Source of the DNA: Rhizophagus irregularis
Taxonomy: Eukaryota > Glomeromycota > Glomeromycetes > Glomerales > Glomeraceae
Direction: 5' to 3'
Assembly: GCF_026210795.1 (NCBI RefSeq)
Contig: NC_089435.1
Span: 558,001 to 622,000 of the forward strand
Length of the DNA stretch: 64,000 bases
Under the pieces are notes generated by a model. The model did not search any database, was not told the DNA's origin, and was given only the letters and a program-made list of their open reading frames with translations. Shown one piece after another: positions 4,251-61,611 of this stretch; position 1 is the first letter of the stretch; every line of letters begins with the position of its first letter. A program made the position numbers and the translations under genes.

Positions 4251-7200
4251 TAGGGATGGGGAAGTTCCACAAATGAGCGGCTTGAGCACGGTTCTGAACT
4301 GAGAACCGAGCCGGAACCGAGAACCGGTTCCGGTTCTCTAGAACTGAACCGTTTGACTCGAGCAGTTCGGTTCGGTTTATAATTATATATAATATTATAA
4401 TGGTCGTTTGTTGTTACGCCAATTGGCTGAAATCAAAAATGGATGATATTATTTTTCAGAAATACGTCATAATATAAATATTATATCATAATTACGTCAT
4501 TGATTTTTTTTAATTTTTTTTTCAGTTAAATAATAAAAAGACAAATAATATAACCATTTCAATTATTCGTCAAAGATCAAATATATTTTACGTCGGTTAG
4601 ATGCTAAAAGGCAAAAGTTTTCTAATTCTTACGATTATTTTTTAAAACACCATACGAAAAAATTCACCAATAATCAAAGAACTGAAAAATGTTTGAATTA
4701 AACGGAAAAGTTACGATAATTATAAATATACAAAATAGGAAATTTTGATTGTTCCTTTAAGTTGAAATAATAATTAATCGGTTAAGAAACTTGTATTTGA
4801 TCCCGTACACTATGAAATTAACATAATCGTCCCTATCAATATGATGATTTGCCTAAAAAAGAATCTGTAATAAATAAATACTGATAATCTAAAAAGATTA
4901 CTTAAAAAAAATCCACTCTCATCTCGGAATGTCATTAAGTGACGAAGAATTTGTTCCTGACCAAGAAGATTTAGTGCTTGATGATGAAGAGTTTGATGAA
5001 GAGTGGGAAGATGTTTTAGACCTTGATGAGACAGCTAGCCAGTTGTCACGTATGAATATAGGATCAGATACTGATGCTTCGGATATAACAACTACGTTAG
5101 GAAGTGCTGTATGGCAATACTTTGATAAAAATCCATCATATGCTCCAGGCTATAATATTTGCAAAATATGTTCCAATAGATACAGAATAACAACGAGCGT
5201 TAGTACTTTGCGAAAGCATCTTAATAAACATAGTTTAAGTGTACCTAAGAAAAAATACGTTGTAATTGAAAAAAGAGATCCTTTTGATAAAGAAGAACAA
5301 CAAATTCACGATAAATACCTTACTGATTGGTTGATCTGTGACCTTCAGCCATTCACGGTTGTTGAAAACCATTATTTTAAAATGTTCATCAATTTTTTCT
5401 GCCCGCGATATATTATTCCTGATAGACATAAGGCAAAAGGTAATTTATTTTAAAAAACTTTTTAAAACTCACATAATAACATCTAATTTTCTTTCTATTT
5501 AAATAGACTTAATAATCGCTACATTTACAAACCGAAGAGACGCAGTTATCAACAAACTCCATAAAATCGAAGGAAAATTCACGTTAACGGCAGATATGTG
5601 GACGTCTACCATAAATCGGGAGGCATTTTTAGGACTCACTATACATTATGTGGATTCCAACTGGAAACTCCAGAATTTTCTTCTTGATATCGTCCCTTTT
5701 ACAGTTAGCCATTCTGGAGCAAATATGGCAAGAGAAATAATGCGAACTTTGGAGGAGTTCAATATTTCCAATAAAATCGTCGCGCTCACAACAGATAATG
5801 AATCTGCTATGATAGTTTGCGGGAGAGAGATTGCTTTAGATATGGATGATGGGTTTTCATCCATGATTTTTTCTCACTACCGGTGCGCTGCACACGTCCT
5901 AAACTTAGGTGTGAAAGAGGGACTAAAACTAGTTAACGATTCCATTAAAAAGGCTCGTAAACTAATGAATAGCATTAAAAATTCGACCCGTCTATGTGAT
6001 AATCTTCGCCTCTTGTGCAACTTAAAAGAAATTAAGTACCTTAAACCTATTATTGATGTAGAGACACGCTGGAACTCTACCTATTATATGTTGAGGCGTT
6101 TGGAGGTACTTGAACCAGCACTAGTTTTACTAGTAGCTGATAATCGATCAATTCATGCTTTTTACCCAAATGATGATGATTGGATTGCTATCAAAGTAAA
6201 TAATTTCTATTAAATTTTAGAAAATTTAATATTATTAAAAAAAAAATAATGCACCAATTTTTTTTTAAAAAAAAATTAATATTACTTATTTTTAAATAGG
6301 ATACGCTTTTGCTTCTTGAACCCCTAGAAAAAGCTACCAAATATTTGTCGGCATCATCTTATCCAACGATGGGTGAGACTCGCTTTATTTTTCGGGAATC
6401 CAGGCACATCTAACGAAAAATATGGAAAATGAGACCTTTACGCAACGTGAAATGGCAACTTTGATACACCGGAAAATAAGACAATATTGGATGATTATGG
6501 ATAAATCTTCGATTACTTCTGCAATTCTGGACCCTCAAAATAAACTTACAATATTCTCGGATGAGTCAAGACTAAGCGCTCTCCAACATATTCAAGACAC
6601 ATACAATACATATAAAGAATGGTCCTTACCTACGAATACAAAACAATATGCTCCTAATAGTACACGCCAGTATTTTGCACGATTGCAACAAATAAATGAA
6701 GAAATTGACCAAACCAGCGACGAAATTTCTCCAGTAATTCCAGCAGTAGAATTCGAAGAATTGAATCGGTATCTTCAACTACCGATTGATGAGGGGACTG
6801 ATCCTCTAACATGGTGGCAAGCGCATTCTAACGAATTCCCGGTATTATGTAACATTGCGCGAGATTTTCTTTGTATTCAAGCAACGAGCGTTGCATCAGA
6901 ACAAGCATTTTCGGTAGCTGGAAATACAATCACTAAAACCCGGAATCGTTTATTGCCGGAAACTGCAAGAGTTTGTCTGTGTATGAAAAGTTGGATTAAT
7001 AATAAGCTAGTCAAATAATAATTTTTTTTTACTTAGCCAGTTAGCCTAGCTGTTATTCGGTTTTTTTTTACTTTACTTTACAATGCCACTAACTCGAATT
7101 TCGTTATTTTTCACTGATGTCAAAAAAAAAACATTTTAATAAATAAATATATAAAGTTAGCCAAATATATAATAGTAAATAATAAGTGTCTTGATTTATT

Positions 7201-14241: not shown

Positions 14242-15385
14242 TTATACACTAATAACTTGTGATTCAAGAATTTCATTCAATTTTTTACTAGTAAGATCAA
14301 GTAAGCGACTTGTATAATATGCTTGTGAATGAGATTCAGTAGCAAAATTGGTATGCCCAATTGGTGCATTTATAAATTCCATAACACTACATTTTAATTC
14401 TTCATTAATATCTTCAATATTCATTTTGTAAGGGATATAAGCCCATTTTTTAATAATATCCGAAACTTCTTCAGAAGATGGCCTTTTAGATGGATTTTTA
14501 TCCCAACATTTTTTCATCAAGTCTACATAACATTGTGGAGTATTTTCAATAATTTCAGGACGTTCACCTTTACAAATATTTAAACAAAGTTGTAGATCAT
14601 GTGCTTTATCATTAAATGTTGACACTCCAGATGTAAATTCCCACATAATCATAGAAAAACTATATATATCACTAGCTGGAGTATAAGAATTTCCTCTTAA
14701 AACTTTAGGTGCTATAAATGGTAAAACACCAAAAATGTCACCTTTTTTTGAAGATGATTTTACAGGTTCTAAATTACTAATATAAATTTTATCTGCTTTA
14801 ATCTCTTCTTTCACTTTATCATTATAATTTAAAATATTGCCATCATGAAGATCACAATGAACAAGATTATTTTTATGTATCTGATTAAGTCCAGTAATAA
14901 TTTCATATCATATATAATTTTTGGTTCCAATTCTTTTTGACTATTCTCATTAAATTTTCTCTTAAATTACCTTTATTTGCATATTCCATTACTACCATAT
15001 ATTTTGAAGTATCTGGATTTTTTGTAAATCCATATAAATCAATAATACTATATGAACTTTTTGGATATTTCCACTATAAAAAAAAATAATAATATATTAG
15101 TATAAATAACAATTTAAATGATAAAATTAAATCAAAAATAAATATAAATAATAATATATTATACTTCATTTAAAAATTCATTTAAATTATCATTTAAATT
15201 ATTATGATATTTAAGAATTACTTCTTCATCTTCGTCAATAGTTAATAAAGGAGGATCTGGTACTACATACAAAGCTATTTTATCAAGATATTTAACATTT
15301 TTAAATTTATTATAAGGAAACCATTTTAAATTATTTTTTTCAATAACTTTATCAATAATTACATTTCCACTTTTTCCGAATCTAT
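14242..15385 (-). pseudogene. Degenerate TKL-like pseudokinase
   Basis: The upstream exon (about 15385..15166) encodes LKWFPYNKFKNVKYL and a beta3 lysine (EEVILKYH) but no Gly-rich loop, and ends FLNE before GTATAA. After an intron (3' end near 15075) come LYGFTKNPDTSKYMVVMEYA and GNLRENL, then two frameshifts (about 14945 and 14910). The frame resumes at GLNQIHKNNLVHCDLHDGNIL and stays open to the stop at 14242. Catalytic HRD is HCD, the DFG position reads SNLE, and APE is APK; the C-lobe (SFSMIMWEFTSG, CWDKNPSKRP) and the tail (YYTSRLLDLTSKKL) are preserved. Frameshifts plus lost catalytic residues argue for a pseudogene. Confidence 0.85.
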
Positions 15386-16198
15386 AATTAAAATTATATT
15401 AAAATTTATATTGAAATTTACATTAAAATTTAAAATTAAAAATTAACACTTACTCTAAAATTTAAATAGGAATTTAATATAATATAAATCTTGGTATTGA
15501 ATAAGTATATATAATAACCTATAATTCACAACTTACCAACTAAAGGAATAGATATTTTTAAATGAAAGAATTCAGTTAACAAATAAATATTATATAAAAT
15601 ATATAATAAAATGAAATAACAACATTGCAGAAATTTTTATAATCGAAACCATATCGTGATTCGTGACTAAGTCAAAAATTTATTGTAGACCTTATAACCA
15701 AGATTTGGCCACAATATGGTTTCACATCATCACGATAAGCTTAAGTTGATCGTATGTATAAAGTTGATGCATATTAAGGAGATCGTCACCTGATTTAACC
15801 GGGTCATACAAATATCGTATCGAGATTAGTCACGTTATATTCAATATATATTAGAAATATATTAAAGTCGTATTTAATATATATAAAAGTTATATTTAAT
15901 GCATATAAAAGTCATATTTAATGTATCGTAAATTTGCATTTACTTTATATTTAACATATCGTGAAGTTGCATTTAATTTATATATAAATTATATTTAACG
16001 TATCGTAATATTGCATTTGATTTATATAAAAGTTATATTTAACATATCGTAAAATTGTATTTAAAGATCAAATTAATTTTTATTTTCAATGTCGCAAATA
16101 AATCATAAAAACTCTATTCTAAATCCAAGTTTGTTGTTCTAAATCATGAATAAAATGAATTTTTTTATGAACGGTGATTAATAAACAAATAATAAACA
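15386..16198. repeat. Non-coding stretch with short tandem repeat
   Basis: From about 15860 to 16065 a degenerate unit of roughly 60 nt containing ATATTTAACATATCGTAAA, TTGCATTTAATTT and ATATAAAAGTT repeats about three to four times. The rest is unassigned. Confidence 0.6.
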
Positions 16199-19100
16199 TC
16201 AAACGGCTTTGAAAAAATATAAGTTTCGTATATACAAATCATTGCTAGAATTGTGATCGCTGTCGATACATTCTTCGCCTCTACAATTGTGAATGAAATG
16301 CATGACGTTAATCGCATTCACTAAACAGATAGAGAAAACCCTTCGCAAATTAGCATTTGTTGTTTGTAACCTGTATACTGGACAGCCTAGTATAGTTCGA
16401 TTTGTTTCCTCAAACCAATCAACGACAACAAATGCAAATCGAAGGTTGTCCTTTTGATGACAAAATATCGCTCTTATAATTGCAAAATTGCCTCCATTTT
16501 CGATATTGATTGATACAACATCCCGATACGTAAACGGCGTAGAATAGTATTATCTCTTTCATTTTCAAAGATAAAACTCGCATACTCAAAGAATAATGGC
16601 ATGCTGTTAGGTATTGCAGAGTTGTCTCTGAAATCTTCGTATGCCAGTTTCAATTCTTCATTGATATTCACCAGTAGTGGCATTTCAACGTTTCTTCGAA
16701 GTACCCATTTCTTTAACAATATATTAGAAATCCGATCATCTGGCGAGCAAACTTTACATACTAAGAGTTAGCAAATTTCATATTTCAATATATATTTTTC
16801 GTATTATAATATTAAATTGTACCTTCTTCTGCATCGTTCTTAATATCAACATTATCTTTCGTAATGAACCAATTGCTCATCAATCGTCGCAAATGTTTTG
16901 GTAAATTCATAAATCCACCGTTTGATGTAGATAATCTCAGATCTATGCCACCATCTAATAAATGCCGTATCGCAAACAAGGTGGTGTAATGCTTTAGTAA
17001 ATCTAAACTCACGTTTTTCAGATTCGTTCGGGGTACAATGTTTTTGAATATCCGATGTATCATCTCCTTTGTTCCAGCATTAGTGTTCAATAACGTCGCG
17101 TAATTCTTTGCATGCAATAGCAGATGGAAGTTGGTATGTAGATTCGGTAAATTTTCAAAATCTTTGAATGCCTATTTGTAAATAATTGAAAATAATTAGA
17201 CTTTGCTGTGTAATATTATTATAAATAAATAAAGAATGGTTATAGTTATATATAAATTTCGAATGCATTTTTTTTTGTTTTCTTGACTTTCATCGATTTT
17301 TGCGTTTGATTTTTGCGTCCTATTTGCGATATGTATTACCTAATACTAGTTAGTGTTATAATTTAAAGAATAATACCTGCGATAAAAGCACTCGTTCATT
17401 ACATAAGCATTCGCGCAATTCGGAATATTCTTCTTTTGTAAAAGAATCTTTAAAAACCATTGCCATCATTTTTGCCATTACGACCCAACATTTCAACCAA
17501 AGTTTGATGGCTAAATCGCTTCTAGTAACTCCTGTTCGACGTTGAAACAAGGCAAGTTCCGAATTTTTGAAATGTGTATTCCTCAAGAACCTATTGAGGA
17601 TAAATGGAATCATCATGGTTAATTCTAGACAGTCCGACATCATGAAACTGTCGATGTGGGATATCGGATTTGGCAATTTTCGCCAAGTCTTCGGGTATTC
17701 AAAATACTTCCAGTTCCTAATGAATTCTGATTTTCCTTTTGGCGAAAGTGCTTCAATTGTGATCTTGAAAAGTCTTGGCGCTTTTCCAGCTGTAAGGTGG
17801 TAGACATCCTGGGGAGACTGTAAGTGTCTTTCCCTTTTCAATTGATCAAGTAAAGGCGGATATAATTGTAGGCCAAATTCGGACGCAATTGCTTTGCGTT
17901 CTGTAATCGTTGACGCCTCAGATATCTCTTTGAATTGTTTATCTGACAGATGATGATAACGAGAGATTAAGTGTAAATCAAGATCGTTGGATGTTAAAGA
18001 TTCTTTTGTTACATTGCATGTCTGGTATCCTCTATTAGCGCTGTGTCGCTTTACTCCAGCCATATCATTGCCTTGCGGCAAATCGGCAGTAGTATCACCA
18101 AGGCTTGCAATTATGACGCATTTGTTCCCTTGAATATTCAAAATCTTTCCTCTCTCCAATACTTTCATTTCTGTAATGAAGGGTTTGATAAATTTGTCGA
18201 AAGAACCACCGAAAGGAACAAATCCTAGAACAAAATGGTTCTTAAGACGATTTCTTTCAGTAAAAAGCATGTTACCTATTTGAACGTAAACGCCACCTAA
18301 AGAATGATAGATGTTTCTGAATGTCCCAAAGTCATCGTAATACAGATCAATGAATAATTTGTAGATTGGAAGATGTGTTTCTGGTTCATCTAATGGCGCG
18401 AATTCCGAAGGATGTTGATATGAATACTTGACATCTCTTAGCTTCCAGCGTCCATTGTACTTGTAGAGAATTTCCTGAATTTTAATTGAATGTCTATTAT
18501 TACTATTATCATAATGAATAGTAATCGGTGCGTGGCTAACAATCGCGTGCAATTCGACATTCATGACCGCATCTTCCATTTCTCAATCAAGAAACCAGAC
18601 TTCATTATCCTGCGATCTTTCTTTGCGATTGTTGCTTTGGAGGTTCCCTGGTAACTCTTCGAATCTTATAATACGTTAGATCTTAATTATCAGTCTGTCA
18701 TCTTTTTGCACAATCGCAATATACGGCCGAATCTTTTCGCATCGCTTGATTCTCTGTATACTACAAAATCCCCAGAGTAATACACATGTTGAGCAATTGT
18801 GATAGACGTTTTACCAAACCTTGCCGATTCTTTCCAAATATCACCGTGCCAGAGTTCTTTGTTTTTTGTGACTTCTTGGCCGGGTCCGAAGTACATGTTG
18901 CTAAATAATAAAGGATTATTCAAAATGTTACAAATGATATCCGTAATGGATAAATAATACGCCTCTCCGATGTTTTTAGACGTTGATAGCATTTTCATGT
19001 TAGTAATATTGATTTTTCGAGATCTTATTGGGAGTAGAGGTAGTCTCTATCTATCTTTCCTGAATCGTCGGCTATTTGGCACAACGTCTTCTTTTCTGAA

Positions 19101-23683: not shown

Positions 23684-26600
23684 TTAACCGCATAGTAACA
23701 AATCACGGGTTTCTGCAATGAAATAACTTACATGCTTTATTATTAAATAATTGTTTAAATAAAGAATTTAGTTAATTCAAATTATATGCAATTATTACAT
23801 AGTAGAATCAAATAAAGAATCAAATAAAAAACTAACACATTATATTATTAAATAATTTATTAAATAATGAATTTAATTAGTTCAAATTTAATAATATATA
23901 AATATGTACTAACAGCTAATAATAGAATTAAATAAATAATTTACCAACTATTATTATTAAAATAAAGAATTTAAGTTAGTTTAAATTATATTATATAAAT
24001 ATGTAATAATAGAATTAAATAAATAACTTACCATCTAATATAAATTAACAAATAATTTTTAAATAAAGAATTAATTAGTTTAAATTATATGTAAATATTA
24101 TATAATAATAGAATTACTTACAATCTATATTAATAAATAATTTTTTAAACAAAGAATTTAGTTAGTTTAAATAATATACAGTATGTAGTAGTAATAGAAT
24201 TAAATAAATAATTTACATGCTATATTATTAAGATAAAGAATTTAGTTAGTTTAAATTATATGTAAATATTATATGAAAATGTACTAACAATAGAATTAAA
24301 TAAATAAATTATAACTTACAATCTAATATAAATTAACAAATAATATTTTAAATAAAGGATTAATTAGTTTAAATTATATGTAAATATTATATAATAATAG
24401 AATTACTTACAAGCTATGTGCCTATGTTAATAAATAATTTTTTTAAACAAAGAATTTAGTTAGTTTAAATAATATACAATATGTAATAGTAATAGAATTA
24501 AATAACTTACACGCTATATTATTAAGATAAAGAATTCAATTAGTTTAAATTATATGTACAGTATATATTATATAAATATGTATAAATATGTAAAATTAAA
24601 TAAGTAACTTACTCGCTATCATATTATTAAATAATTTTAAATAATTTTAAAACAAGGATTTAGTTAGTTTAAATCATATATATATTACACAAATATGTAT
24701 TAATAGAATTAAATAAGTAACTTACTTCCTATATATTAAATATTTTTAAAATAAAGAATTTAGTTAGTTTAAACTATATGTAAATATTATATAAATATGT
24801 AATAATAATAGAATTAAATATATAACTTATAACTTACCAACTAAAAGAAATTACCAAATAATTTTTTAGTTAGTAGTTTAAATTATATGTAAGTATTATG
24901 ATATAAACATGTAATAATGGAAATAAATAACTTACGAACTATATTATTAAATAATTTTTAAATAAAGATTAGTTTAAATTATATATTTATATGTAAATAA
25001 TATGCAAATGTGTAATAATAAAATTAAATAAATAAATTATAACTTACCATCTAATGTAATTATATAAATTACCAAATAAATTTTAAATAAAGAATTTAAT
25101 TATTTTAAATTTATATAAATATGTAATAATAGAACTAAATAAATAACTTACTCCCTATATATTAAATAAATTTTTTAATTAAAGTAATTGGTTAGTTTAA
25201 TTATATGTAAATATTATATGAATATGAATAACAAATAACTTACTCCCTATACATGTTATTAAATAATTTTTTAAATAAAGAATTTAGTTAGTTTAAATTA
25301 TATGTAAATATTATATGAATATAAAATAATAGAATTAAACAAATTTTAGCTTACTCCCTATGTTATTAAATAATTTTTTAAATAAGAAAAAATGTATTTG
25401 TAACAGCCTGTTACATATCTTATTTGTAACATCCTTTTTTTATTTTTTTTTTATAATAAGTTTAATGTGTTTCACAAATAAAATTTTTATATGCAAAATT
25501 TAATTTGGAAAACTTTTACTTAATGTATTTAAGACAGTTTCATAGACAAAATTTTAAGTTATAAGCAGTTTCTTGAAATTTTTTAAAAAATTCTTTTGTC
25601 TTAGTTACACAACTGATCTTTTGTTTTTGTTTACATTACGCCTGATCTTAAATTTTAATTGGATAAAATTGGGGGTTGTTACAAATAAGACACGTAACAG
25701 GCTGTTACAATTAGATTTATCCTTTAAATAAAGAATTTAGTTAGTTTTAAATTATATGTAAATATTATATGAATATGAAATAATAGAATAAAAAATAACT
25801 TACCCTCTATAGTATTAATTTTTTAAGTAAAGAATTTAGTTAATTTAAATTATAAGTAAATATTATATAAATATGTAATAATAGAATTAAATAAATAACT
25901 TACGCCCTATATTAATAAATAATATTTTAAATAAAGAATTTAGTTAGGTTAAATGATATGTAAATATTATATAAATAAATAACCTATAACTTACAATCTA
26001 AAAGAAATTACAATATAATTTTTTTAAATAATATGTTAGTTTATATAAATATGTAATAATAGAATTAAATAAATAACTTACTCCCTATATTATTAAATAA
26101 TATTTAAAATAAAGAATTAAGTTAGGTTAAATTATATGTAAATAAAGGTATAAATAAATAACCTATAACTTACCGTCTAAAAGAAATTATTTTAAATAAA
26201 GAATTTAGTTAGTTTTAAATTATATGCAAATATTATATGAATATGAAATAATAGAATTAAATGAATAAATTACTTACTCTCTATAGTATTAAATAATATT
26301 TTAAATAAAGAATTTAGTTAGTTTAAATTATATATAAATATTATATAAATGAGTAATAATAGAATCAAATAAATAACTTACGAACTATATTATTAAATAA
26401 TTTTTCAAATAAAGAATTTAGTTAGTTTAAATTGTATGTAATATTATATAGATAACTAACCTATAACTTACCATCTAAAAAAAATTATTTTAAATAAAGA
26501 ATTATAAGTTAGTTTAAATTATATTATATAAATATGTGATAATAGAATTAAATAAACAACTTACAATCTATATTATTAAATAATTTTTTAAATGAAGAAT

Positions 26601-27417
26601 TTAGTTAGTTTAAATTATATGTAAATATTATATACTAATGGAATTACTTACGAGCTATTTTAATAAATAATTGAATTTAGTTAGTTTAAATTATATGTAA
26701 ATATAAACATTTAATTATAGAATTAATATAAATTAATAATTTTATAACTTACTATCTAAAAGAAATTACCAAATAATTTTTTAAATAAAGAATTTATTTA
26801 GGTTATATTATATAAAGAATAGAAATATGGACTTACACCCTGTAGTATTATTAATTATTAATTAGTTAAATATGGATATAAGAGAATATACTGTAAATTA
26901 AATATATCACTTGCAATCTAATTATTTATGAAAAATATAATTAGTTGAGTTATACGAAATATTAAACAAATAAATATAGTTTTCAAATATTGTAACTTAC
27001 CATCTGTGATATTAAATAGTTGATTAAACAAAGAATTTAGTTATTTGAATATTATGTGAAATAAAATAAAAAACTAAAGATTTAAATAACTGATAGCTTA
27101 CAAACTATAATATTATTAATCATTAAACGAATTATTTGGTAATATGAAATATAACAAAAATAAGTATTCTCATTATTATTCAATTATAAGATAATCTATT
27201 AACTTACGAGCTAAATTATTATTTAATATATAATTGTTATATAATATAGTTAGTTTATATGTGTATATTATAAGGTATAATAATAGAAAATGATTAAATA
27301 AAAAGTTTAATATATCAGCTTGTTTAATATATTATATTTACCTTTGGATTCCTTGGTGCTAGTACTTCCTTCAAATTCTTCGGTACTATTTCCTCCAAAT
27401 TCTTCAGTATTGGCCAT
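23684..27417 (-). CDS. Candidate micro-exon gene: one 76-nt exon plus about 31 three-nucleotide exons
   Basis: The first exon 27417..27342 encodes MANTEEFGGNSTEEFEGSTS then TKESK and ends one base into a codon before GTAAAT. After it, minus-strand units of about 80-140 nt each show a GT(A)AGT donor, a CTAAC-type branch site about 36-40 nt before the acceptor, and a TAG/CAG acceptor, always leaving exactly three nucleotides before the next donor. Triplets by top coordinate: 27210 CTC, 27104 TTT, 27003 ATG, 26917 ATT, 26839 GGT, 26755 ATA, 26654 CTC, 26567 ATT, 26474 ATG, 26384 TTC, 26280 AGA, 26176 ACG, 26084 GGA, 25997 ATT, 25906 GGC, 25806 AGG, 25357 GGA, 25246 GGA, 25154 GGA, 25050 ATG, 24938 TTC, 24840 TTG, 24728 GAA, 24615 CGA, 24513 CGT, 24413 CTT, 24322 ATT, 24229 CAT, 24124 ATT, 24034 ATG, 23947 TTG, 23734 CAT. 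In the frame set by exon 1 the joined triplets read without a stop, beginning ALYDWYTHYV. A last acceptor (TTTCATTGCAG) opens a 29-nt exon 23712..23684 ending in TAA. Exon 1, 31 triplets and this exon total 198 nt, a multiple of three. Splicing is inferred, not shown. Confidence 0.5.
23713..27341 (-). repeat. Tandem array of intron-like units, about 100 nt each
   Basis: About 33 diverged copies of a unit run head to tail. On the + strand a typical unit reads AATAACTTAC, a variable triplet, CTAT, then AT-rich text containing AAAGAATTTAGTTAG and TTTAAATTATATGTAAATAT. On the minus strand this is donor, branch site and acceptor. Spacing between triplets ranges from about 78 to 113 nt; the one outlier contains an inserted 311-bp element. 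One unit near 23840 has lost donor and acceptor. The donor is GTAAGT in most units; variants are GTAAAT (23941, 24221), GTAAGC (25349, 27096) and one GCAAGT (26909). The last complete unit (triplet 23734) is only 19 nt from the final acceptor. Confidence 0.9.
25399..25709. mobile_element. MITE inside the intron-like array (311 bp)
   Basis: Arms 25399-25430 and 25678-25709 are inverted copies over 32 nt with about three mismatches, both beginning TGTAACAGCCTGTTAC. The element sits between the donor of the unit with triplet 25806 and the acceptor of the unit with triplet 25357, so it enlarges one intron without touching splice signals. Similarity may continue a few bases outward. The target duplication is unclear (possibly ATT). 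Confidence 0.75.
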
Positions 27418-59462: not shown

Positions 59463-61611
59463 CTAAAAGATTTGTTGGTTGCCGATCGTACTAAAATAGA
59501 AAAGCTTGATTTGAAATGTATTTATATAATCAGCAAATCAATACCAAAGATGGGGGATCAGCATCTTAAAATGGAAATCACTCAAAAACTAATCTTATGT
59601 TAACGTTAAGTTAACGTTAACCTATCATGACATGTCAATCATTTCAAGTCATAACAATAACGTGACGCGCCACCCACCCACCCATAGGGTGATATTGCAC
59701 TTATATAGAATGATCTTTCTTGCTTAAAAATTATGGGATAAAATTTTTAGCAAATCATGTGAAAACTGAATAATTTTTTTGTTAGCCAAAAATGATCAAC
59801 AACCGGATGACAAATTTTAATATTATGTAAATAAACAATTTGTTTGTATTACTTATTTAAATATAGATACATTTTTTTTTTATTTTGAACCAAAAAATAA
59901 ACAATAATCAAATGGTAAATTTTCATTATCGTCATCATTACATTATCGTTATAATTAAAGTTCCCTGCCGAAATTAGGGAGTTTCGGCATGTCAAAATTG
60001 TCAAAACTATTTTGACATGTCAAAATTGTCGAAACCTAAAAATATTACATTTCACGTAATAACTCGGCGTCCAATGATCATAGAAAGATGCACCATAGCT
60101 CGTTGGAATCGTCTCATAACGACGAGTCGAATGGTGGTTAAATCGTCTTTCTACGATCACTGGATGCCGAGATATTAAGCGAAACGTCAAAAATCGGCAT
60201 TTTGTATTTTGCGATACTGCGTTATTTGACGTTTCACTTAATAACTCGGCATCCAATGATCGTAGAAAGATGATTTAACCACCATTCGACTCGTCGTTAT
60301 GAGACGAATCCAACGAGCTATGGTGCATCTTTCTACGATCATTGGATGCCGAGTTATTAAGTGAAACGTCAAATGGCGCAGTATCGCAAAATACAAAATG
60401 TTGATTTTTGACGTTTCGCTCAATATCTCGGCATGCAGTGATCGTAGAAAGACGATCTAACCACCATTCGACTCGTCGTTATGAGACGATTCCAACGAGC
60501 TATGGTGTATCTTTCTACGATCATTGGACGCCGAGTTATTACGTGAAACGTAATATTTTTAGGTTTCGACAATTTTGACATGTCGAAACTATTTCGGCAT
60601 TTCGGCATTTCTACAGGTTTTAGTTTCGACATTTCGACAATAGCCTGTAGAGTTTTGGCAGGCAACTTTAGTTATAATGCTATCATGAAAATTTTTTCAG
60701 GGTAGTAATTCTAAAAATGATTAACAATCAGATAATAAGATTGTTGTTTTATTATAATGTTATCATAAAATTTTTTTTCTCAACAATTGGATGATAAAAT
60801 TAAATAAATGTTATATCAAGTAATTTTTTATTTTGAAACAAAACAATAAACAACAACTAAATGGTAAAATTTCATTATCATTGTCTTATTATTATGATAT
60901 TCAGTTATCATAATTTTCCAGAACTAAAAATGATCAACAATCGGATAGTAGAATTGTTTTATTACAATATAATCATGAAAAATTTTTTTCCAGAGCCGTA
61001 ATTCCAAAAATGATGATAGTAAATATTAAATAAATGCTTTATCAAGTAATAAACAATCTTTCTGTATTGTTATTTAAAGTTAATCACATATTCTGATATA
61101 TATATTTTTTTATTTTTAAACCAAAAAATAAACAACAATCAAGATAATTAACCTTAAAATGATTAACAAGTGAAATAACTAAGCCAAAAATGATTAACAA
61201 GCAAAATAAACCGAAAATGATCATCCTTTACCAAATGAGAAAAAAATTATGTTAATAGCTAGTTAAGAGTAATTTCTCATTTTTTTTTATAGATATGTTA
61301 AATATAATCAAAAATTTTGCAAATAAAGTGAAAGTTATGGTTTGGCTAGAAAAGCCCGGCGAGCGAAGCGAGCCAAATGAAATTGCATCATCATAATAAA
61401 TCACATGAATATTTAATACACAATCACATGATCTACCAGTAATTTTTCCACCAGTTAAAATTTAGAAATTCTCTTTAAATCTTAAAAACTATTTATCATA
61501 ATAATTATGATACTGTATGGTAGTATAAACCAACTTAATTAAAAAAAAAGTCAGAATTATTACAGTTCTAATTATACTATGACTATAGCTCCCTGCCATG
61601 TTTAATGTTAA
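59463..61611. other. 2.1-kb block separating the two halves of the kinase-module array
   Basis: No gene. It contains the composite palindrome 59951-60676 and AT-rich text with repeated AAATGATCAACAA. At its edges the module text breaks on the right after TTTAACAAG (minus strand) and on the left resumes at TTTAATAAG, a near-identical 9-nt sequence, which suggests an insertion. GGCGAGCGAAGCGAGCC at 61,359 is a G+C-rich near-palindrome. Confidence 0.55.
59951..60676. repeat. Composite foldback element of three nested palindromic units
   Basis: Three about 122-bp units (about 60057-60178, 60240-60361, 60420-60541), each with its own inverted ends (TAACTCGGCATCCAATGATC), are arranged so that the whole region folds back around the middle unit. 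The spacers 60179-60239 and 60362-60419 are inverse copies of each other (AAACGTCAAA...TTTTGTATTTTGCGATAC). Outside are inverted GACAATTTTGACATGTC arms and outermost arms near 59955 (TTAAAGTTCCCTGCC) and 60662 (GGCAGGCAACTTTAG). Open frames here are by-products of the repeats. Confidence 0.9.

What the first reader, a model, noticed from the sequence alone, without database searches (positions are those of the whole stretch)
23684..27417. Candidate gene made of about 31 three-nucleotide exons
Seen directly: on the minus strand an ATG exon (27417..27342) with a donor is followed by 32 consecutive units in which AG, exactly three nucleotides and GTAAGT (or a close variant) recur about every 100 nt, each with a CTAAC branch-like site 36-40 nt before the AG. 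Known: spliceosomal introns need donor, branch and acceptor, and micro-exons of a few nt exist but are normally isolated. Inferred: one transcript could splice this array so that each repeat contributes one codon; exon 1, 31 triplets and a last 29-nt exon make 66 codons with a terminal stop in frame. I know of no described gene organised this way.
Basis: partly seen in the sequence, partly recalled or inferred. Interest (0 to 1): 0.96.

Follow-up and report, generated by a model that had tools for sequence, protein, structure and literature searches.

The report
Kinase genes built from single-codon exons
In this fungal genome a large family of protein-kinase genes appears to spell out part of each protein one codon at a time, from long rows of three-letter exons separated by ordinary introns; the copy in this window is a damaged member, and no gene built this way turned up in the paper listings searched.

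Summary
In detail: 32 units AG-NNN-GTAAGT-like lie at 27212..23732, minus strand. It is one of many. Matches to the 5' exon lie at 26 loci, 25 with such arrays (10 to 83 triplets). Genome-wide, a strict unit pattern with a 3-nt exon has 775 hits; with 4 nt, 1.

The arrays sit inside protein-kinase genes: 5' exons, 3-nt exons, a 1-nt exon (A), kinase exons. Phases agree; the kinase exon is open with the 1-nt exon in 24 of 24 loci testable by script, without it in 0 of 24.

Decisive test: codons formed across consecutive triplets have 0 stops in 687 (shuffles 21.9±3.8), and 0 in 253 (7.5±2.3) in eight loci picked by kinase exon. Joins skipping one triplet show no avoidance (20 vs 19.6; 7 vs 6.9). 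Selection therefore behaves as if each triplet is joined to the next. Triplets vary more than nearby intron sequence.

No RNA data were available.

The parts
27342..27417 (-). 5' coding exon (ATG..AAAG, 76 nt, ends in phase 1); MANTEEFGGNSTEEFEGSTSTKESK
   Evidence: matches of this exon at 26 loci; in several relatives it is split into a 22-nt ATG exon and a repeat exon
23732..27210 (-). array of 32 three-nt exons (each triplet starts 2 nt below these A-of-AG positions: 27212, 27106, 27005, 26919, 26841, 26757, 26656, 26569, 26476, 26386, 26282, 26178, 26086, 25999, 25908, 25808, 25359, 25248, 25156, 25052, 24940, 24842, 24730, 24617, 24515, 24415, 24324, 24221, 24126, 24036, 23949, 23736)
27208..27210 (-). 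first 3-nt exon, CTC
   Evidence: CTC is first in 16 of the 19 loci counted
25397..25711 (-). about 0.3-kb insertion with inverted ends (GTAACAGCCTGTTAC / GTAACAGGCTGTTAC) in the intron between AGG and GGA; ends approximate
   Evidence: read by eye
   Evidence: ORF 17356..18579 inside has no Pfam match
15537..15539 (-). last 3-nt exon TTG, beyond the insertion
   Evidence: TTG ends the array in 18 of 22 relatives counted
15454..15454 (-). 1-nt exon A (TTTAAATTTTAG|A|GTAAGT)
   Evidence: C7:573448-573466
15165..15381 (-). first kinase exon (FGKSGN...), entered in phase 2
   Evidence: homologues
14242..15073 (-). second kinase exon; 2 nt shorter than relatives near 14.91 kb, so its frame is broken there
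   Evidence: one search compared by eye; ORF 14242..14814

Best explanation
The array is the N-terminal coding part of a protein-kinase gene. Short 5' exons end in phase 1; then 12 to 83 consecutive 3-nt exons (in members not visibly decayed), each flanked by a short intron (median 95 nt) with a near-perfect donor, add one codon each. Every codon is made of the last base of one exon and the first two of the next. A 1-nt exon (A) then shifts the phase by one, so that the kinase exon is read in frame; that codon comes from three exons. Shown by sequence: the units, their exact 3-nt size, the phase agreement at both ends, the absence of stops at consecutive joins, and the family's spread. Inferred: that the ordinary spliceosome does it by intron definition, removing neighbouring introns in sequence like a ratchet, because the factors at an acceptor and a donor 3 nt apart cannot sit there at once; and that the exons are normally all included. 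Less certain: that a codon-sized cassette lets tandem duplication or loss of units change protein length without shifting the frame, giving a fast-changing region in front of a conserved kinase. The window's copy was interrupted by an insertion and has a frameshifted kinase exon, so it is probably dead or dying.
For: 3-nt exon specificity genome-wide: 775 hits for 3 nt; 1 for 4 nt; 1 for 2 nt, the same ambiguous site; 4 for 0 nt, three of them readable as triplets ending in AG. Free-length models give 3-nt exons for 359 of 392 in the test loci, 81 of 84 and 269 of 285. Consecutive joins: 0 stops of 687 against 21.9±3.8, 0 of 1000 shuffles this low; skip-one joins 20 of 620 against 19.6. Eight further loci chosen by kinase exon, 8 of 8 with arrays: 0 of 253 against 7.5±2.3, 0 of 5000; skip-one 7 of 232 against 6.9. 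Of 84 joins where a T would make a stop, none has T; the 30 left after removing similar introns give P about 3.5e-5. The 1-nt exon keeps the kinase exon open in 24 of 24 loci, against 0 of 24 if skipped (5 loci not matched by the script). 76 of 81 exact copies of the 1-nt-exon motif lie about 63-491 nt before a listed kinase exon on the same strand. Spliced in silico, 16 of 22 loci are open for more than 330 aa through the array into the kinase's catalytic loop; Pfam PF07714 E 7.8e-44 for L021. Of the 16 arrays among the first 100 listed hits, 15 are followed by such a kinase exon; the 16th was not examined.
Against: No RNA evidence was available. No spliced, intronless copy of the start or end of an array was found at up to 3 mismatches. 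Some gaps between units hold no good 3-nt exon, so some genes may be broken or use unusual sites; of the 22 loci, four were not assembled by the script and two closed early or ran short (L035, L013). One filled-in weak unit (L035) makes a stop. Removing the whole array while keeping the 1-nt exon would also stay in frame. The small third set alone is not significant (0 of 72, expected 1.8). Relatedness of units means shuffle significance overstates independence. Read as whole codons, triplets also carry few stops (2 of 772; 18.7 expected from base composition), though that frame does not fit the exons on either side.
Confidence: 0.9

Rival explanations
1. The array is removed as one long intron (or in recursive steps that leave nothing behind); triplets never reach the mRNA, and the 5' exon joins the 1-nt exon directly.
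For: Array length is a multiple of 3, so this also keeps the kinase frame. Recursive splicing at juxtaposed splice sites is known in flies (PMC6110457 and PMC8605326, abstract openings seen).
Against: Stops are avoided only at consecutive joins, 0 of 687 and 0 of 253, not at skip-one joins; non-coding triplets should show no such pattern. Zero-length units are nearly absent.
Confidence: 0.05
2. The 3-nt exons are alternatively included, giving many protein versions from one gene, as in schistosome micro-exon genes.
For: Nearly all are 3 nt, so any subset keeps the frame.
Against: Joins that skip exons contain stops at or above the random rate: skip-one 20 vs 19.6 and 7 vs 6.9, skip-two 18 vs 17.4 and 12 vs 6.4; selection does not act as if skipping were common. 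Occasional skipping is not excluded.
Confidence: 0.15
3. A non-coding tandem repeat or chance pattern without function.
For: The units are tandem repeats, and repeats copy their signals by descent.
Against: Splice signals stay nearly fixed while triplets differ; no stops at consecutive joins; the fixed position before a kinase exon; the 1-nt exon.
Confidence: 0.02

Closest known systems
Schistosoma micro-exon genes (MEG; PMC10526429, abstract and passages seen)
   Same: Genes built mostly of tiny exons, mostly multiples of 3, hard to annotate.
   Different: The text gives exons of 6-81 bp, mostly 15 bp (the abstract says 3-81), 10 to 20 exons, introns of 0.1-5 kb, secreted proteins, alternative splicing of central exons. 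Here nearly every array exon is 3 nt, introns have a median of 95 nt, there are up to 83 triplets, and the product is a kinase.
Aphid bicycle and megacycle genes (PMC9168663, passages seen)
   Same: Many small internal exons of one phase; a divergent gene family; one gene with more than 100 microexons.
   Different: Different exon phase (phase 2 in that paper's convention), effector-like proteins of insects. Single-codon exons were not mentioned in the passages seen.
Single-nucleotide exons: Arabidopsis APC11 (PMC4674806, abstract and introduction seen) and Fusarium CYP621A (PMC12940212, abstract seen)
   Same: A 1-nt exon needed for the frame.
   Different: Isolated cases; the second paper calls itself the second example. 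Here the same 1-nt exon recurs before dozens of kinase exons and follows an array.
Recursive splicing / ratchet points (PMC8605326, PMC6110457, abstract openings seen)
   Same: Acceptor and donor almost touching, stepwise removal plausible.
   Different: Ratchet points juxtapose acceptor and donor and leave no sequence (the latter recalled); here each step leaves 3 nt that behave as coding.
SP7-like effectors of R. irregularis (PMC11333574, passages seen)
   Same: Repeat-bearing gene family, probably of the same fungus.
   Different: Signal peptide, amino-acid repeat units, a conserved intron before the first repeat; no kinase is mentioned in the passages seen.

Membership tests
Protein kinase family (Pfam PF07714/PF00069) | significant profile match and catalytic motifs | tested here: met
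   L021 in-silico spliced protein: PF07714 E 7.8e-44, PF00069 E 7.2e-38; HCDFHDGN and DLG read. The window's own copy is frameshifted.
Schistosoma-type micro-exon gene | exons of varied small size, mostly 15 bp | tested here: not met
   3 nt in 359 of 392, 81 of 84 and 269 of 285 called exons
Schistosoma-type micro-exon gene | secreted product with alternatively spliced central exons | not testable with these tools
   no RNA; skip-one joins show no stop avoidance; no signal-peptide program was run
Spliceosomal introns | GT-AG ends, donor consensus, branch-like site | tested here: met
   donor GTAAGT at 96-99% per position, in units selected by a pattern that already demanded most of it; CTAA-, TTAAC- or CTGAC-like motif in 672 of 747 introns under 150 nt
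Spliceosomal introns | removal shown in RNA | not testable with these tools
   no transcript data held
Recursive (zero-length exon) splicing | AG directly followed by GT, nothing retained | tested here: not met
   4 zero-length hits against 775 three-nt hits in the same context; stop avoidance implies retention
Single-nucleotide exon | 1-nt exon required for frame | tested here: met
   24 of 24 loci open with it, 0 of 24 without; RNA not tested
SP7-like effector | signal peptide and hydrophilic repeat units ending in Y[KR]Rx[AP]x[AP] | not tested
   no search made; the encoded products look different by eye

The most novel reading that the evidence does not exclude
The arrays are a genome-encoded repertoire of hypervariable codon cassettes. 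Units are duplicated, lost and shuffled as frame-neutral single codons, and selection drives the triplets apart while the introns stay alike, giving dozens to hundreds of kinases with different N-terminal recognition segments (rich in R, D, G, N, Y, W) that sense partners, microbes or other individuals.
Probability: 0.3. Interest if true: 0.97.

Novelty: categorically new. Interest (0 to 1): 0.94.

Why it matters
If transcripts confirm it, tens of consecutive exons of one codon each become an extreme case of what a spliceosome can do. It would test directly how splice sites 3 nt apart are recognised without exon definition, and in what order. It also offers a mechanism for fast protein change: duplication or loss of a unit always adds or removes whole codons. 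Gene finders are likely to miss exons this small (inference; no annotation of this genome was seen), so the N-termini of a large kinase family in what is probably an ecologically central plant symbiont may be mis-annotated.

Tried and rejected
Two other frames: phase 2 has 120 stops in 704 codons; phase 0 has 2 in 772 but does not fit the exon on either side. Retrocopies of the spliced form as direct proof: none found at up to 3 mismatches. The 9 hits for the start pattern stand beside 4 of the reversed control; of the two I fetched, L055 lies in an unrelated open frame and L056 in none of 40 aa or more; the other seven were not looked at. For the end pattern, two of the 3 hits are ordinary kinase-exon starts from the list; the third was not examined. 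Pfam for the ORF inside the insertion: no match. A genome-wide total extrapolated from pattern sensitivity (44 of 805 units, giving ~14,000) is not used, because sensitivity differs between subfamilies. My first protein script cut the first kinase exon short in L014, L021 and L025, among others, and used a wrong carry for loci without the ATG exon; one search replaces it for all but L025, L027, L030 and L034, and one search replaces the Pfam result.

Rows left out: L011 (interrupted array), L028 (no array) and L031 (array mostly lost) from the stop test; joins across gaps over 150 nt; exons longer than 3 nt were cut to their last 3 nt where an AG preceded these. Two stops seen across such gaps (L026, L032) vanished when a unit was found in the gap; one new one arose (L035). 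One search dropped units that were not 3 or 6 nt (L013, L015, L020, L023, L035). In one search five loci (L030, L035, L040, L044, L045) were not matched by the script and are not in the 24. In one search, chains were cut where units lay 450 nt or more apart. In one search the first-triplet counts leave out L013, L014, L019, L023, L026, L027 and L028, whose starts are shifted, different or absent.
Full report
OBSERVATION. The minus strand from 27417 to 23684 was read. It holds 32 units with exactly three nucleotides between an AG and a GTAAGT-like donor. For AG-N{k}-GTAAGT with k from 0 to 30 the array has 27 hits at k=3, 2 at k=1, 1 at k=11 and none elsewhere. A splice-site model trained on other loci and free to choose exons of 1-60 nt exons here, 31 of 3 nt. 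In 114.5 kb of other strand it exons, one of 3 nt, and in 50 Markov resamples of the array 0.02 3-nt exons on average.

A FAMILY. The window lies in G000, 146.7 Mb in 32 contigs. Size, composition and gene content suggest Rhizophagus irregularis, whose assembly has 32 chromosomes according to a passage seen; this is my inference, no tool named the genome. The 5' exon has 30 matches at 26 loci. All 25 other loci were fetched: 24 carry an array and L028 does not, so with the window it is 25 of 26. L011 is interrupted and L031 mostly lost. Triplets per locus run from 10 (L031) or 12 (L027) to 83 (L015), after a few weak units were filled in. The strict unit pattern has 409+366 hits genome-wide with a 3-nt exon, 1 with 4 nt, 1 with 2 nt at the same ambiguous site, and 4 with 0 nt, three of them readable as triplets ending in AG.

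GENE ANATOMY. Relatives share the plan: in many a 22-nt ATG exon; an exon coding repeats such as STEEFEGS; an array; a 1-nt exon A; then kinase exons beginning FGKSGN. Among 19 loci counted, the array starts with CTC in 16, then TTN in 14 or TCA in 4, ATG in 12, ATT in 18, GGT in 16; among 22, it ends with TTG in 18, preceded by CTT in 14. The 5' exon ends in phase 1, 3-nt exons keep phase 1, the 1-nt exon makes phase 2, and the kinase exon starts in phase 2. Spliced in silico in this way, 16 of 22 loci are open for more than 330 aa, through the array and into the catalytic loop; six of these run from an ATG exon (L014 435 aa, L018 455, L019 441, L021 446, L023 398, L032 468), and three of the six (L014, L021, L032) have no unresolved gap. 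L013 gave 293 aa, L035 closed early at a weak filled-in unit, and four loci were not assembled by the script. L021 matches PF07714 at 7.8e-44. With the 1-nt exon the first 190 nt of the kinase exon are open in 24 of 24 loci matched by the script; without it, in 0 of 24; five loci were not matched. The 1-nt-exon motif has 117 hits at up to one mismatch, against 4 for the reversed control. Of the 81 exact hits, 76 lie about 63-491 nt before one of the 150 kinase exons listed, on the same strand. Starting from arrays instead: the first 100 of the 775 hits fall into 16 clusters; 10 have a listed kinase exon downstream; five more were fetched and have one too, with a matching 1-nt motif upstream; one was not examined.

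THE DECISIVE TEST. If consecutive triplets are joined in phase 1, each codon is the last base of one exon and the first two of the next, ~95 nt apart in the DNA. Stops at such joins: 0 of 687 in 23 loci, against 21.9±3.8 when triplet order is shuffled within loci (0 of 1000 as low; one search gives 0 of 704 with 6-nt exons included, 22.0±3.7, 0 of 5000). Joins that skip one exon: 20 of 620 against 19.6; skip two: 18 against 17.4; distances 4 to 6: 12, 12 and 19 against 15.6, 14.1 and 12.6. I then took eight kinase exons from the lower-identity part of the list, without first looking for arrays there: all 8 have arrays, with 269 of 285 called exons of 3 nt; 0 stops of 253 against 7.5±2.3 (0 of 5000), skip-one 7 of 232 against 6.9, skip-two 12 of 214 against 6.4. 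A third, small set gave 0 of 72 against 1.8, and 0 of 63 against 1.6 for skip-one; neither is significant. Among 84 joins (16 loci of the main set) at which a T would create a stop, none has T; after removing similar introns 30 remain, P about 3.5e-5, the more honest figure because units are related. Filling gaps with weaker units gave 1 stop in 736, at a poor candidate.

VARIABILITY. In unit pairs whose upstream flank is ~97.5% identical (956 pairs), the three triplet positions differ in 43, 24 and 51% of pairs; the downstream flank differs by 15.6%, donor positions +1 to +6 by at most 7%. Conditioned on the downstream flank instead (1461 pairs), triplets differ in 60, 48 and 70%, but the upstream flank differs by 21% and some positions near the acceptor by up to 49%, so the contrast is weaker. 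Pairs at least 97% alike on both sides (135) differ in 11, 6 and 39% at the triplet against 1.3% in the flanks. These pairs are not independent: only 19 clusters are alike on both sides, 9 of them with more than one triplet. Diversifying selection is a reasonable reading; homogenised introns are another. The encoded middle segment (688 residues) is rich in R, D, G, N, Y and W.

THE WINDOW'S COPY. After the last CAT the sequence enters an ~8.1-kb insertion with an inverted match CATTGCAGAAA at 23720 and 15623. The gene resumes with TTG at 15539..15537, the 1-nt exon at 15454 and kinase exons at 15381..15165 and 15073..14242. The second kinase exon is 2 nt shorter than relatives near 14.91 kb (by eye), which breaks its frame.

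MECHANISM. Introns are short (median 95 nt, minimum 63, for the 747 of 780 under 150 nt) with near-perfect donors, and 672 of 747 hold a CTAA-like site. The base before the donor is nearly evenly A, C, G or T, so recognition must rest on the intron: intron definition. From general knowledge, U1 and the 3' splice-site factors cannot sit 3 nt apart together, so neighbouring introns are probably removed in sequence. This is inference.

LITERATURE. Nine full-text searches listed no paper whose title or abstract opening describes an array of 3-nt exons; most listings were capped at 12-25 papers. Closest are schistosome MEGs, aphid bicycle genes, two single-nucleotide exons and recursive splicing. 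The assembly paper for R. irregularis (PMC10234402) was seen in passages only and those passages mention no such genes. Subscription papers, bioRxiv preprints and supplements were not seen.

VERDICT. What is missing is RNA.

Noticed in passing
window 25397..25711: About 0.3-kb insertion with inverted ends inside one array intron, MITE-like (by eye).
   Followed up: no
L040, L043, L044: A second kinase subfamily with arrays and a 1-nt-exon motif; L040 continues into a long coiled-coil-like C-terminus, L043 and L044 into a second kinase-like stretch (by eye).
   Followed up: partly
arrays in general: Triplets beginning with TA are absent among the 766 exons, although most such triplets would make no stop in phase 1; unexplained.
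   Followed up: no
window 60146..60551: A 182-nt unit repeated about 2.2 times whose consensus contains an inverted copy of part of itself.
   Followed up: no
L013, L015, L018, L021, L035: A few 6-nt units, some ending in an extra GTA before GTAAGT, possibly 3-nt exons in transition.
   Followed up: no
window 4929..7018 (+): Three adjacent ORFs that look like a hAT-type transposase; the name is recalled, not searched.
   Followed up: no
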